The translations under genes and the position numbers were made by a program. The notes beneath the pieces were generated by a model. It did not search any database and had not been told where the DNA came from. It saw only the letters and a program-made list of their open reading frames with translations. Source: Spongospora subterranea (Eukaryota; Endomyxa; Phytomyxea; Plasmodiophorida; Plasmodiophoridae). Taken from it: DNA of 21,336 bases. The stretch is taken from positions 12,949-34,284 of the forward strand of contig OUQQ01000064.1 of the NCBI GenBank assembly GCA_900404475.1, in the 5' to 3' direction. Of the stretch, positions 14,542-20,359 are shown piece after piece. Position 1 is the first letter of the stretch. The number at the start of each line of letters is the position of its first letter.

Positions 14542-17500
14542 TCAGTTTGTATTGGAAAAATTAGATGGAATAGACGTGGTTGAACTATGAACTCTGACCA
14601 GGCTATGATGAACAATACCGGTCCGCCCATCGATCGAAGCCATGATGTAGCCATCACCCATATCCTGTTTGAACACCATCGAGTCTGCCTTGTTCAATGC
14701 CAGCTCCTCACTATCTTGCTCCGTAATGCGATCGGTCATGGCCTCGAATTTGATCCCCGCATGGTCAACGGTCGCGTCTCTCTGTTGTATTTGACTAACA
14801 CTTACGCGTCCTGCAGTTGGAGCTGTAGATCCAGACCCTTTGTCCACAATCGGGCGATTAATGCTTCCCGACGATCTTGGGCTATTACGTATGCCGGAGA
14901 GGACCGTATTTGCCAGCTCAAATATGACCCGTTCCCAAGCGCTCTCGACCATTGTCCGCCGTCGCTGGCGCTTTTCGCCATGAGCTGGCAAACGCATTGA
15001 GTCGCTCTGCGCATGAAATTTGGTGTATTGGACAATGGCGACATGATATTGATAGATTAAGGCCAATGCACTGGTGCCAATATCGATTGATAGGAACACC
15101 AGATTGAAAACATCCAAATTATTGCCATACGACGGAGATATTATCGACCAGATCCATAAGAAGGACTGCATGAGAAGAAGTATCCCTAACAGCATTGTGA
15201 GCCGTTGCAGAAATGTTGCCAAAGTATTATATCTGCATGAAAACAGGGTCGGCCACCGAATACGATTACGAGCAGAAACAAGGATTTACCTAGCGGAGTC
15301 GGAGGGTTTGCAAGCAGTAGAGTGTGCTTGCATATGGAGATGGATGGACAACGCCCAGCCGACACTAGGAATTAATGCACCAAGAGAAAGCATCAACGTG
15401 AACATGAGGAACGATGCAATAACCTCAAATATGGTCGACTCAAAGAAAAATGAGAGAAAAAGCAGGGTGATGGGCCCACATGATGCAATAAACGTGACCA
15501 GGCGAACAGTAGTGATCGCTCTCCAGAATATAACGCGGGCCGATTTAGCCCACCCACACATGCTGGCGATTGATGAGAGCAATGCTAATAATATGCATAA
15601 AAAATATGCGAATATAACGAAATGGCTGAATTGAACCAGAGACGCCAAGATAATACGGAGTACTTGAATTTCAACAGAAACAGGTCCATCATTTATGATC
15701 GTCAGATTGAACATAAATCGCAGAATGGACTTGATGACGATTATAGAAGTGATTCCAACGAATGACTGCTGAGAGATTTTGTTGTTCATATATCCGGTGC
15801 CGAACGAGCAAATGTGGATTGATAATGCAGAAATGACGACGGCCGCTATGGCTGAACCCGCTAATGACAATACTAACATATGCGTGCTGCTGTTCGACAA
15901 AGAAGAACGATGGACGAGGACAAAGTCAGTGAGATGGCGACACTGGCATTCAACGTATGTTTCCGAGCCGTAAGATTTGGTGCTGATTTGACACCCGTCC
16001 AAACTGAGATTGTTGGACTGCGAGAACCAGGCACAATCATAATCGTTCGGGAAAGACACGACGCCCATTGATATGTTGATCGACTGATGAAGATTATCGG
16101 CATGAACCAAAGTGTTGTTCTCGCTCATGATATTCACAGTGTGAACCCAGCCGGCTCCCTTGGTGCCATCGCAATCCGGCCCACAGCTGATGTTCCGATA
16201 AACTATAGAGACTATTCCTAACGGCATCCCATAATGCAAATCAGTGAACGATAACGGTACTGCTATACGACATGGCGATTGTGGGCAATGGGATTGTCCT
16301 GAGAACGCATCTGTACGATACGTTTGAATTGTGAACAAATTGGTGTCGATATTAGATGAGCATGATCCACATCCTCCTGCCGATTGCGCCGACAATTTTG
16401 ATGTGGCCAACTGCTGTAATACATGATCAACGTCTTGATCATATCGAGCAAATGTCGACCCCGATGACGATATCGAGAAGGATTTCGTCGGCATCACTGC
16501 CGAAATCGCTGTTGAGATATACCTTCTTCCATCATCGGATAATCCATTGTTGTCGATACTCGACTTGCTGAGGAACGAGCGGGCCAATCGTAAAGTCGTG
16601 TTCGCGAACCGATCATCAACTGGAACACCGTTCTAAACCAACCACTTGAGAAAAATGGAATTCTTCGAAAAACATATCTGATCTGATTACCATAGTGATA
16701 ACAGATAAAGCCTTGGCCATTGACGTAATCCGATCGGATGTGTCCTCGGATGAAGTATTACTTAAAGTAGTAAGAACATCCAACAACTGCTGCCTCTGAG
16801 TCGTCTGCGCCGCGGGATTATTGTTGATAATGGAAGCGGCTGAATACACGCCATCAATAGTATTGATGGCCCCAATAGCAATTGAGTTGATTGACGGCGG
16901 TGTGCACGTGATGATGAATTCGGGGCGAGTGGTCGATGGGATTCCGTTTGCGATAACTTCAACAGCTAATACGAGTTGATAGTTGGATAATGGATCACCG
17001 ATAGGTAGCACAGTTGTGAACGATGATGATCCGTTCATGGGGAATAACTGTCCATCTCCTAGAGCATAATACTGGCTGCCTAGCTTGATGAAGTACCTTG
17101 CATACGACCGGTTCACGGATTCTCCGACCCAATTGTTGGTTGATAAAGTGAACGCGTTATGAAGGGCGACCCCGCTTGCCGGAGAAACATATAGCTGTCC
17201 GCCATGTAATGGGCTGGAGATGTCCATGATGTTCTCAACAACGAACACAGGTAGACTGCGATCTTTAGGGGTTAGAATCAAAGAGAAATTGAAACGCCCT
17301 GGATTGTTGATGAGGTAAGACGTCACGATTTCAAGCTCTAAACTATTGCGGGAGCTTGGCACGATTTCGGGATTGTTCAAGTCGATCCGATCCGAGACCC
17401 ATTGAACCGATGATATCAGTGTTGAATCGGAGACCACGCCACGTAATATAATTGATCCTTGATAGCGGGACAGATCGCCAACGACACTAATTTTGGCCGA

Positions 17501-20359
17501 TATTTTAGGAGGTACAGTTGGCTTTGTAGACGATGCCGAATGCGCCATCGGTGAGGAGGGAGTAGCCGACGAGGCAGGAGGAGGCGCGGAAGACGACGGA
17601 GATGATGACGTAGGAGCGGATGACGAAGATGATGCGGTAATAGAAGATGGTGATGAGGATAAAGAAGTAGATAATGACGAATGCGATATGAATGTTGTTG
17701 AATCGCGACGAGTCGTAGGTTTTGCTGTTGTATATTTACTGGTTGGAGCTGCGCACTGGAATGATGTCTGAATGGAGTCAACCGCACCGTTGATGAAAGA
17801 ATAAACTGCTGTATCGCCATCTAATTCAGTGAATACAATACCGCCCAGATGTTTGGACCGGCTAAACGAAATCTTCTCCGACGCGGCCGCTGGGCTATCA
17901 TACGAAATGACGGCTCCAGGTGAAGAACCGTACAGAAACGATGCTTTACTGGTATTGTCCCAGACCTGAACCCATCCAGAATCCAGTAATGATACGATAT
18001 CTCGATAGCGATACATGTCATTATCCGACGCCCCAATCAAGTACGTCCCAGGAAACTTTTGAAAAAGGGCAGGAAAAGAAACAGAACTGGGAGTCGAGGA
18101 AAGTGTCCATCCAATTCCGATTAGGGGAATTGACATCGCGACCTGGCAACTCGGAATCCCGGTAGCCAGTATTCGCTCAATAACAAACTTAACCGAATCA
18201 GTGGCAGCAGAATCCATATTGAAATACAAAGGAGATGCATGACCAATCGATGGGGCCCAACGCCCCCTACAGAAAAATCGCGTCGTTAACCCCGGTTTGC
18301 AAACGCTTTCAATTCCCCATACCAGAACGAGTATGAACGAACGTTGATCCAATCGACATGACTGGCTAATCCAGGAATATCGTATCTTGGAGCAAACTCA
18401 TTTAGGGTATACTGAACGTCGGCAGTTAAGATGTATGATGACCCCATCTTGACCCGGAATTCGGCCGCCAATCCATTGAAATTATCTCGTTCAGTTAGAG
18501 TACGAATATCGCCACCGGAATTTCCTCCCAACATGGGATATTCTGAACACAATATCATGAGTGTACGATTGAAATATTGCAGCTTGAATGCATACCCCAA
18601 TATACATTAATGCCGTCGAAGCCATAGGTTTTCATTAGTGCTATGCATGAGTCGACAAACATTGATTGTCGAACAGAATTCGACGTGATTGTACTGAAGG
18701 CAACAGACTGTCCAACCTGTAAAATTGTCTTGAGATGAGGGTATTTCAATTTTAAAAGGCGCAACTGGTTATAATTGCCCTTATAAGGACTATCTGTATC
18801 ATCTCCGAGAGAATTGGGTCCAAAGACCTGATCGACATCCACCGTCGGTTGCTGTGGCTGACATTGATATAATCCGTCGGAAACCGCCTGACTATACACA
18901 ATATGTGTGAACTGGCTACCGTTAATACTCCTAATTGAAGCCAGGCTCTCCATTGATCCACGATAATGTCCGATGATTCTAGTGCTGGATTGGGGTCCAG
19001 AGCTGTTGCATGAACGGCAAGGTCCAGGAACCGATACCTGAATTGGAACTGGGGTCGGTATTTTGCTTTGGCACGTGGTCAACGTCGACAGCGTCTTCCC
19101 AACTAAATCTACAGCCTCGAAATTAGGCTTGTCTCCAGATAAGTCGTGAAAATACACGCCTCCTAGGTTGAGACGATGAGCATAGGACGCCTTTGCCATA
19201 AGCGACCTCGGCGATTCGATAGAGATGAAATAACGATGTACAGCATTGAACAGGGCTGATGCGTTAGCAATATCATCATGTACAAGAGCCCATGGCAATC
19301 CGTTCAACGTGAGATCGGCAACGTCTCGATATCGGAACTGACCAAGGTCAAGAGCACCGGTTGTGTAGGGGGTGGCGCCAGTCGAAACAAACAGGCCAGG
19401 AAAGGAAGCGCCGGATTGTGAATTTGGCAGAATCCACGCCGGATATGAAAGAGAAAAGGCAAGGGAGATTTTACAAGGAGGCATCCCAGACTGAATTACT
19501 TGAGTGACTAAAAAATCCACGCATTGAGTACTGGGAGCTGCCGGATTCCAAAACAGCGGAGCACAATGACTGTTCTGATTCGACCAGATTCCCCACATAC
19601 CAAACGCCATGACATTAACCCAACTAACATATGGCGCAATTTCGGCAACGTTGAAGCTCTTGGTCACCTGGTTTGCAAATATTGGTAATTCGGCCACTAA
19701 CAAACCGCAATTCCCGTCTCTGAACGCTTTTAAAAGCGAAACGTGATTGTCACGATCCGCTGCAGATCGAACTGCATTTGGATTTAAATTATCACCTGGA
19801 AAAACTACAACATCAAGAGTCAACGGCCCATTTGCGAACCGTCATCGGGTAACTTACGCCATCGTACCTCGACACCATCAAAATTATAGCGCTCCGCCAA
19901 GCTGATACAAGAATTAGCTAGTAACATTCTAGAATCGTTCGATGCTGCAAGAGTGCTGAAGTCGAGCGTGTTATATCCTCCAATTGTCATGACGGTCTTG
20001 AGATGGGGATATTTACTCTTGAGTAGCACCAGTTGGCCCAATTGGCCTTTGAACGAAAGACCTGAATCATCTCCGATCGCGTTGGCACCATAAGCGAGGA
20101 GCGTCTCTCGAGAGAAGTCCTGAATTGCGCATTGACCATTGACAACATTGACTCCATCCCAAATGATGTGAGTAAATAGCGATCCATTGATTCCAGCGAT
20201 AGCAATCCCTGATTTCCAGTTGTAATAGTGACCGATTATCCGAGCGGAGGTCTTCGGGCCGGTACCACTAATATTGCAGGATTGGCATGGAACCCATCCT
20301 TGAACACTCTGCAGCCAGATCCACGGGAAAACGGCCAGCAGAAACTTACGAGACCTCAT
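14542..20359 (-). CDS. GH18-GH18-REJ-GAIN/GPS-7TM receptor (adhesion-GPCR-like with chitinase-like ectodomain)
   Basis: Exons 20359-19858, 19804-18596, 18542-18323, 18266-16691, 16632-15290 and 15232-14542 total 5541 bases: 1846 residues, introns 53-58 bases. Order: signal peptide (1-20, 'RKFLLAVFPWIWLQSVQG'); GH18-1 (about 35-413); GH18-2 (about 442-815), each opening with 'PCxSCNxSG' then 'RIIGHY'; Ser/Thr/Pro-rich mucin-like linker (about 816-897); REJ-like region (about 900-1165, 'GQLYVSPASGVALHNAFTLS'); GAIN ending in a textbook GPS (C1369, W1371, C1383, C1398, C1400, HL|T at 1402-1404); seven hydrophobic spans (about 1421-1682); a basic, Ser-rich cytoplasmic tail of about 160 residues. 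The GH18 motif DxxDxDxE is DGVEVRWL in domain 1 and DGINVYWE (Glu571) in domain 2, so neither should be a normal hydrolase. Inferred role: surface receptor for chitin or a related glycan, activated through GPS cleavage. Confidence 0.9.

What the first reader, a model, noticed from the sequence alone, without database searches (positions are those of the whole stretch)
14542..20359. Chitinase-like ectodomain fused to a GPS-cleaved seven-span receptor
Six exons, joined at GT...AG sites in matching phases, give one uninterrupted 1846-codon frame that links a signal peptide, two GH18 domains, a mucin-like linker, a REJ-like region, GAIN/GPS and seven membrane spans. GPS (Cx1W...C...CxCxHLT) and GH18 signatures are read directly. 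REJ-GPS arrangements are known from polycystin-type proteins, and GAIN/GPS-7TM defines adhesion GPCRs. I do not know of a described class with tandem GH18 as sensor. In an organism that meets chitin walls (its own or a host's or prey's) this would be a direct chitin-sensing GPCR-like receptor, with tethered-agonist activation starting at Thr1404.
Basis: partly seen in the sequence, partly recalled or inferred. Interest (0 to 1): 0.93.

Follow-up and report, generated by a model that had tools for sequence, protein, structure and literature searches.

The report
Pseudo-chitinase receptor with seven membrane spans
A potato-scab parasite, far from animals on the tree of life, has one gene that joins two chitinase-shaped sensor domains, which have probably lost their enzyme activity, to a self-cleavage signature and about seven membrane spans, a receptor layout that a recent survey found only in animals and their closest relatives.

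Summary
Joining six exons on the minus strand (20359-14542) gives 1846 codons, identical to a database protein of Spongospora subterranea (Plasmodiophorida, Rhizaria), named only 'GH18 domain-containing protein'. Two GH18 domains are clear. A REJ domain passes Pfam's cut-off when scanned as a slice or from DNA. A full-pattern GPS is present but scores below the cut-off. Hydrophobic stretches that I group into seven spans follow. One exon links GH18 to REJ and another links GPS to spans 1-5, so one 58-nt intron separates the halves.

Both GH18 domains have altered catalytic residues, so they are probably binding modules. REJ plus GPS is a polycystin-type order. The membrane part matched no Pfam or PDB sequence, and word-based protein searches found no relative. 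It cannot be filed as an adhesion GPCR, although it has that layout. The genome has G-alpha and RGS genes.

A 2025 survey says the GAIN-7TM linkage, and complex ectodomains on such receptors, occur only in holozoans. Here a rhizarian shows the same layout, by independent assembly or deeper ancestry. GAIN fold, chitin sensing, self-cleavage and G-protein coupling are inferred, not shown.

The parts
14542..20359 (-). whole gene, six exons, 1846 aa
   Evidence: joined exons equal database protein P0001 letter for letter
19858..20359 (-). exon 1: signal-peptide-like start and N-terminal part of GH18 domain 1
   Evidence: signal peptide judged by eye
18596..19804 (-). exon 2: rest of GH18 domain 1 and N-terminal part of GH18 domain 2
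18323..18542 (-). exon 3: middle of GH18 domain 2; the codon of the motif Glu (571) is split by intron 2
16691..18266 (-). exon 4: C-terminal part of GH18 domain 2, Ser/Thr-rich linker, REJ and the start of the GAIN-like part, in one uninterrupted frame
16952..17290 (-). REJ domain match, residues 970-1082
   Evidence: Pfam PF02010 28.3 bits on a slice, cut-off 25; 26.8 bits from the genome DNA, over cut-off; coordinates checked
15290..16632 (-). exon 5: rest of the GAIN-like part, GPS and the first five membrane spans, in one uninterrupted frame
15928..16035 (-). GPS motif, Cys1369 to Thr1404
   Evidence: full pattern in 0 of 200,000 shuffles; Pfam GPS 17.7-20.4 bits, under the cut-off of 22.5
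15895..15930 (-). candidate tethered agonist TDFVLVHRSSLS, starting at Thr1404
   Evidence: sequence; role inferred from adhesion GPCRs
15052..15879 (-). seven membrane-spanning segments by my grouping (intron 5 lies inside)
   Evidence: hydropathy; seven long helices plus one short one in low-confidence single-sequence models
14542..15232 (-). exon 6: spans 6 and 7 and the C-terminal tail with a basic cluster

Best explanation
This is a cell-surface receptor of Spongospora subterranea, for which no paralogue of the membrane part was found. Two tandem GH18 domains with altered catalytic motifs act as a lectin-like sensor for chitin or related N-acetylglucosamine polymers, most likely the parasite's own spore-wall chitin. 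A mucin-like stalk leads to a polycystin-type REJ plus GAIN/GPS module. That module is cut at His-Leu/Thr1404 during maturation and stays together non-covalently. When the bound wall polymer pulls on the outer fragment or strips it away, the new end (TDFVLVHR...) engages the seven-span part, which signals through one of the cell's G-alpha proteins. Shown here: the gene, its exon structure, identity to a database protein that is probably transcript-derived, two GH18 domains with altered catalytic motifs, REJ above cut-off on a slice and from DNA, the full GPS pattern, about seven spans, and the presence of G-alpha and RGS genes. Inferred: signal peptide, GAIN fold, cleavage, ligand, tethered agonism, G-protein coupling.
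For: Joined exons equal UniRef A0A0H5QTU0 exactly. A S. subterranea transcriptome (HACM01) was deposited in 2015 (passage), before the 2018 draft genome (passage); that this accession comes from it is recalled, not shown. GH18 x2. Motifs: domain 1 DGVEVRWL and domain 2 DGINVYWE where PDB 5gzu has DGIDLDWE; SxGG reads TIGG and QVGQ; MxYD reads MAFG and RSYS (family motifs recalled). REJ. GPS pattern. Spans, with K/R in ICL1/2/3 of 1/3/2 against 0/0/0 in ECL1/2/3 and 8 in the first 48 residues of the tail. G-alpha matches over the cut-off on 7 contigs (no control over the cut-off); 17 of 18 RGS matches over the cut-off (no control rang). Plasmodiophorid spore walls contain chitin (abstract). Chitin-synthase-model matches: 7 of 9 over the cut-off, but the same model also rang over the cut-off in 4 of 14 control genomes, all prokaryotes by name, so these may include other glycosyltransferases.
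Against: The membrane part resembles no known GPCR family by sequence. GPS is below the Pfam cut-off, this gene was not listed in the GPS genome search at E up to 0.001, and the GAIN model gave no match. No ortholog was found, so conservation cannot be tested. The loop-charge bias is not significant on its own: 8 of 9 K/R inside, P = 0.16, with the tail's basic cluster left out. The span count rests on my grouping of hydropathy stretches. With catalytic residues lost, chitin binding is not assured. Both structure models were of low confidence.
Confidence: 0.5

Rival explanations
1. A wall-adhesion protein, not a signalling receptor. The GH18 pair and mucin-like stalk bind chitin of neighbouring spores (Spongospora spores clump into sporosori) and the membrane spans are only an anchor.
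For: The membrane part has no detected GPCR similarity. Both GH18 domains have altered catalytic motifs, which fits binding. No close relative of the GH18 pair of comparable length was found; the six other hits are 27-29% identical over 35-42% of the query. That Plasmodiophora spores stay loose is recalled.
Against: A plain anchor would not need a full GPS pattern placed about 17 residues before span 1, nor REJ before it.
Confidence: 0.22
2. A derived polycystin-1 relative: the outer part is the polycystin REJ-GPS module, and the membrane part is a cut-down or rebuilt polycystin membrane region that regulates a channel rather than a G protein.
For: REJ followed by GPS is the polycystin-1 order (recalled), and the same genome has a REJ-GPS gene on contig C141.
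Against: No PLAT domain and no polycystin membrane family among the Pfam matches; about seven closely spaced spans, not one, a PLAT loop and ten (recalled layout); tblastn at E up to 0.001 found no similarity between this gene's REJ-to-GPS part and the C141 stretches.
Confidence: 0.18
3. A membrane-held enzyme that trims chitin during spore-wall building; the domains still work as chitinases.
For: Domain 2 keeps the Glu of DxxDxDxE, rebuilt across intron 2. In Plasmodiophora, GH18 genes of cluster Pd1 are mainly expressed in spore formation and germination (passage).
Against: Domain 1 lacks the Glu; domain 2 has Tyr for the Asp two places before it; SxGG and MxYD are altered, except that domain 1 keeps GG.
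Confidence: 0.06
4. Two separate genes joined by mistake: a secreted GH18-REJ protein and a separate GPS-7TM protein.
For: The halves meet only across the 58-nt intron 4, and no transcript reads were examined here.
Against: The database protein crosses intron 4, and the stretch on both sides of it reads as one GAIN-like region (by eye).
Confidence: 0.03

Closest known systems
Adhesion GPCRs (class B2, GAIN-GPS-7TM) of metazoans, choanoflagellates and filastereans
   Same: Large modular ectodomain, GPS pattern CxCxHLT, Thr at the cut, Phe at the third position after the cut (consensus recalled), spans starting about 17 residues later
   Different: No detected 7tm_2 similarity; REJ present; 'chitin' and 'GH18' do not occur in the main text of the 2025 survey (term search; adhesion section read); found in Rhizaria
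Polycystin-1 / PKDREJ / suREJ family
   Same: REJ followed by GPS (order recalled); a 2026 review says polycystin-1 can be regarded as an atypical aGPCR with a GAIN domain (passage)
   Different: No PLAT domain found, about seven spans rather than eleven (recalled), GH18 pair at the front
Chitinase-like lectins (chitinase-3-like protein 1, YKL-40)
   Same: GH18 fold with lost catalytic acid (recalled); chitinase-3-like 1 chains are among the PDB sequence matches (best 60 of 140 shown)
   Different: Those are secreted single domains (recalled); here a tandem pair is part of a multi-span protein
Plasmodiophorid GH18 genes (cluster Pd1 of Schwelm 2015)
   Same: 29-51% identity over aligned pieces to GH18 loci on contigs C18, C511, C554 and C599 of the same genome; in 6 of 10 other GH18 locus stretches scanned, the motif is followed by W, one base and an intron-like GT, as in both domains here
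   Different: The GH18 stretches on C404 and C175 gave no tblastn hit; in the stretches compared (about 1.5 kb either side) no REJ-GPS or 7TM hit was found. That these loci belong to Pd1 is inferred.
Tandem GH18 chitinase of PDB entries 5gzt and 5gzu (ChiW of Paenibacillus, name recalled)
   Same: Best PDB sequence match, two GH18 domains in a row
   Different: It keeps DGIDLDWE in both domains; a bacterial enzyme (recalled)

Membership tests
Adhesion GPCR | GPS motif with Cys-aromatic...Cys...CxCxH-L-T | tested here: met
   Pattern from Cys1369; 0 of 200,000 shuffles (pattern written after seeing the sequence)
Adhesion GPCR | GPS by curated profile | tested here: inconclusive
   17.7 bits whole protein, 20.4 bits slice, cut-off 22.5; not listed in the genome search at E up to 0.001
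Adhesion GPCR | GAIN domain | tested here: inconclusive
   No PF16489 match in the Pfam scans nor in a genome search that rang in no control; single-sequence model shows helices then strands before the GPS but at low confidence
Adhesion GPCR | Seven membrane spans | tested here: met
   Seven segments by my grouping of 14 overlapping hydropathy stretches; seven long helices plus one short one in poor models
Adhesion GPCR | N-terminus outside | tested here: inconclusive
   Charge bias consistent, P = 0.16
Adhesion GPCR | 7TM sequence related to 7tm_2 | tested here: not met
   No 7tm_2 match at E up to 10 in Pfam, no PDB sequence match; HMMER filters drop most weak matches
Adhesion GPCR | 7TM fold of a GPCR | tested here: inconclusive
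   Models too poor (pLDDT 44.7 and 54.2); fold searches uninformative
Adhesion GPCR | Autoproteolysis and tethered agonism | not testable with these tools
   needs protein
Polycystin-1 | REJ domain | tested here: met
   28.3 bits on a slice, cut-off 25; 26.8 bits from DNA; not listed for the whole protein
Polycystin-1 | PLAT domain and eleven spans | tested here: not met
   No PLAT among Pfam matches; about seven spans
GH18 chitinase | GH18 fold by profile | tested here: met
   287.9 bits for the protein, 127 and 169.7 for the two domains
GH18 chitinase | Catalytic DxxDxDxE | tested here: not met
   DGVEVRWL and DGINVYWE

The most novel reading that the evidence does not exclude
Rhizaria evolved, apart from animals and their kin, a GPS-cut seven-span receptor with a complex ectodomain, by placing a pair of the lineage's own inactivated chitinases and a polycystin-type REJ-GPS module on an unclassified 7TM; it reads chitin directly. 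Or else the GAIN-7TM linkage is far older than holozoans.
Probability: 0.42. Interest if true: 0.88.

Novelty: new variant of a known kind. Interest (0 to 1): 0.72.

Why it matters
A December 2025 survey (PMC12716839) places the GAIN-7TM linkage in stem holozoans because the two domains occur together only there, and reports no extra extracellular domains on non-holozoan receptors of this family (section read). A rhizarian gene with a GPS pattern directly before about seven spans and a multi-domain ectodomain either breaks that statement or shows that the layout arose twice. It would also be a receptor with a chitin-lectin sensor in an obligate crop parasite of a group whose spore walls contain chitin. 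And it is a case where a signal of self-wall, not of host, may be what is sensed.

Tried and rejected
Relatives: three protein searches (all that were allowed). Residues 860-1700 (7,989 candidates scored, a capped list, E up to 0.001) and 1360-1700 (2,803 candidates, E up to 10) returned the protein itself only. The GH18 part (7,988 candidates, a capped list, E up to 1e-10) returned itself and six others, all without an organism name. These searches need shared exact words and a length of 0.55-1.75 times the query, so a diverged, shorter or longer relative would be missed. Scans of viral and prokaryote contigs for exon 5: 22 and 33 pattern matches, none a relative.

Paralogues: none of the GPS-7TM part in its own genome at E up to 1, where only one candidate passed the first look. 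Of 15 CxCxH[L/F]T DNA matches, 14 have no GPS context by eye; the pattern cannot see variants such as the C141 one. The genome held is 20.6 Mb while published assemblies are 28.08 and 31.51 Mb (passages), so absence is not proven.

7tm_2, Dicty_CAR and GAIN genome searches found nothing but rang in no control either, so they do not show absence. 7tm_3 gave two other loci, not this gene.

Papers: 10 searches. Spongospora with GPCR and chitin: 0 papers. The accession: 0. GPS site, REJ, seven transmembrane, protist, polycystin: 0 with 4 of 5 terms. GPCR, GH18, chitinase-like, adhesion, ectodomain: 3 with 4 of 5 terms, none about such a receptor by title and start of abstract. Adhesion GPCR with Rhizaria, GPS and evolution: 1, the 2025 survey. 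Plasmodiophora brassicae with GPCR: 10 papers, 8 listed, none opened for this question. Only open-licence PMC papers are held; no supplements were read.

Corrected on re-check: the REJ match is at 970-1082, not one residue further; SxGG in domain 2 reads QVGQ.
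Full report
What the window is. The window lies in a 20.6-Mb genome held in 679 contigs. A search with residues 860-1700 of the spliced protein returned a single entry, the protein itself, from Spongospora subterranea, 1846 aa, 100% identical over the searched part, named only 'GH18 domain-containing protein'. Spongospora is a plasmodiophorid, Rhizaria.

The gene. Six exons joined at GT...AG give 1846 codons that equal the database protein exactly. My own first join differed by nine bases at one acceptor, which the database protein corrected. 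The introns are 53-58 nt. Exon 4 alone carries the C-terminal part of GH18 domain 2, the Ser/Thr-rich linker, REJ and the start of the GAIN-like part; exon 5 alone carries the rest of that part, GPS and the first five spans. So the fusion rests on one 58-nt intron, and the database protein crosses it. No reads were examined here. The signal peptide is judged by eye; its best 19-residue hydropathy is 1.15, under the cut of 1.5 used for spans.

The ectodomain. Pfam finds GH18 twice (127 and 169.7 bits, cut-off 29.6). The domains are 34% identical to each other over 363 columns and 29-51% identical over aligned pieces to GH18 loci on four other contigs; stretches on two further contigs, C404 and C175, gave no hit. 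Compared with the tandem chitinase of PDB 5gzu, domain 1 reads DGVEVRWL and domain 2 DGINVYWE where it has DGIDLDWE. SxGG reads TIGG and QVGQ, and MxYD reads MAFG and RSYS (family motifs recalled). Catalysis is therefore unlikely in either; domain 1 lacks the acid Glu altogether. In 6 of 10 other GH18 locus stretches scanned, an intron-like GT follows the W codon plus one base, as in both domains here, which suggests that the pair was recruited from the lineage's own GH18 family.

REJ, GAIN and GPS. REJ passes Pfam's cut-off on a slice (28.3 against 25) and from the genome DNA (26.8), though it was not listed for the whole protein. The GPS pattern is complete, with Thr1404; the full pattern occurs in 0 and its core in 16 of 200,000 shuffles. 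But the Pfam score is under the cut-off, and the GPS genome search at E up to 0.001 listed only a gene on contig C141 (25.4 bits, over the cut-off), not this one. The C141 gene also has REJ and looks polycystin-1-like; a further REJ match is on C135. The GAIN model gave no match and rang in no control.

The membrane part. Hydropathy above 1.5 gives 14 overlapping stretches, all in 1417-1677, which I group into seven spans. Segment 3 is 39 residues long and segments 4 and 5 are one residue apart, so seven is the likeliest count rather than a proven one. K/R counts are 1, 3 and 2 in the inner loops and 0, 0 and 0 in the outer ones; with the flanks but without the tail's basic cluster, 8 of 9 are inside, P = 0.16. 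No Pfam or PDB sequence matches it and no relative was found. Single-sequence models show seven long helices and one short one, which in both models overlaps the intron-derived insert, at low confidence; fold searches are uninformative. It is an unclassified membrane region.

Surroundings. The genome has G-alpha matches over the cut-off on 7 contigs, 17 of 18 RGS matches over the cut-off and two class C receptor loci. A chitin-synthase model gives 7 of 9 matches over the cut-off, but it also rang over the cut-off in 4 of 14 control genomes, all prokaryotes by name, so these may be other glycosyltransferases; that plasmodiophorid spore walls contain chitin is taken from the abstract of PMC4471660. 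So a signalling chain, and probably a self-made ligand, are at hand.

Comparison with what is known. The eLife 2025 survey (adhesion GPCR section read; the rest by term search only) states that GAIN and 7TM are linked only in holozoans and that extra extracellular domains are absent from non-holozoan receptors of the family. Krishnan 2012 (passages) says that complex N-termini are absent in fungi, amoebozoans and alveolates. This gene has the layout but fails one defining test, sequence similarity to 7tm_2, and GAIN is not shown, so I do not file it as an adhesion GPCR; it may work like one. It fails PLAT and eleven spans for polycystin-1, and the catalytic motif for a chitinase.

Verdict. Architecture: very likely real. 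Mechanism, a wall-polymer receptor with GPS cut and G-protein output: about one in two. The adhesion-only rival is the strongest alternative. The absence claims rest on an incomplete genome and on word-based searches.

Noticed in passing
G000 contigs C599, C511, C554 (L005-L008, L010, L011): Six other GH18 loci have the DGxNxxW motif followed by an intron-like GT; reading across the likely splice by eye, the motif Glu seems kept in only one (C511), so much of this 'chitinase' family may be non-catalytic. Splices not verified.
   Followed up: partly
G000 C141 (L001, L034): A large polycystin-1-like gene with REJ and GPS over the cut-off.
   Followed up: partly
G000 C135 (L032, L035): A REJ match of 56.1 bits in another gene.
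   Followed up: no
window 11608-11802: Inverted repeat with 83-nt arms, 96% complementary, 29 nt apart, among short open frames at 11186-11916 that look transposase-like by eye.
   Followed up: partly
window 8948-10213, minus: AAA ATPase with proteasomal OB domain, probably a 26S regulatory subunit.
   Followed up: yes
window 1431-2330, minus: AAA_2 ATPase; looks HslU-like by eye.
   Followed up: partly
window 4449-5210, plus: EamA-type transporter.
   Followed up: yes
window 20851-21336, plus: CCCH zinc-finger frame running into a roughly 30-nt tandem repeat at the window edge (seen).
   Followed up: partly
whole genome G000: RGS domains are numerous (17 of 18 matches over the cut-off), which in my judgement is many for a 20.6-Mb parasite genome.
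   Followed up: no
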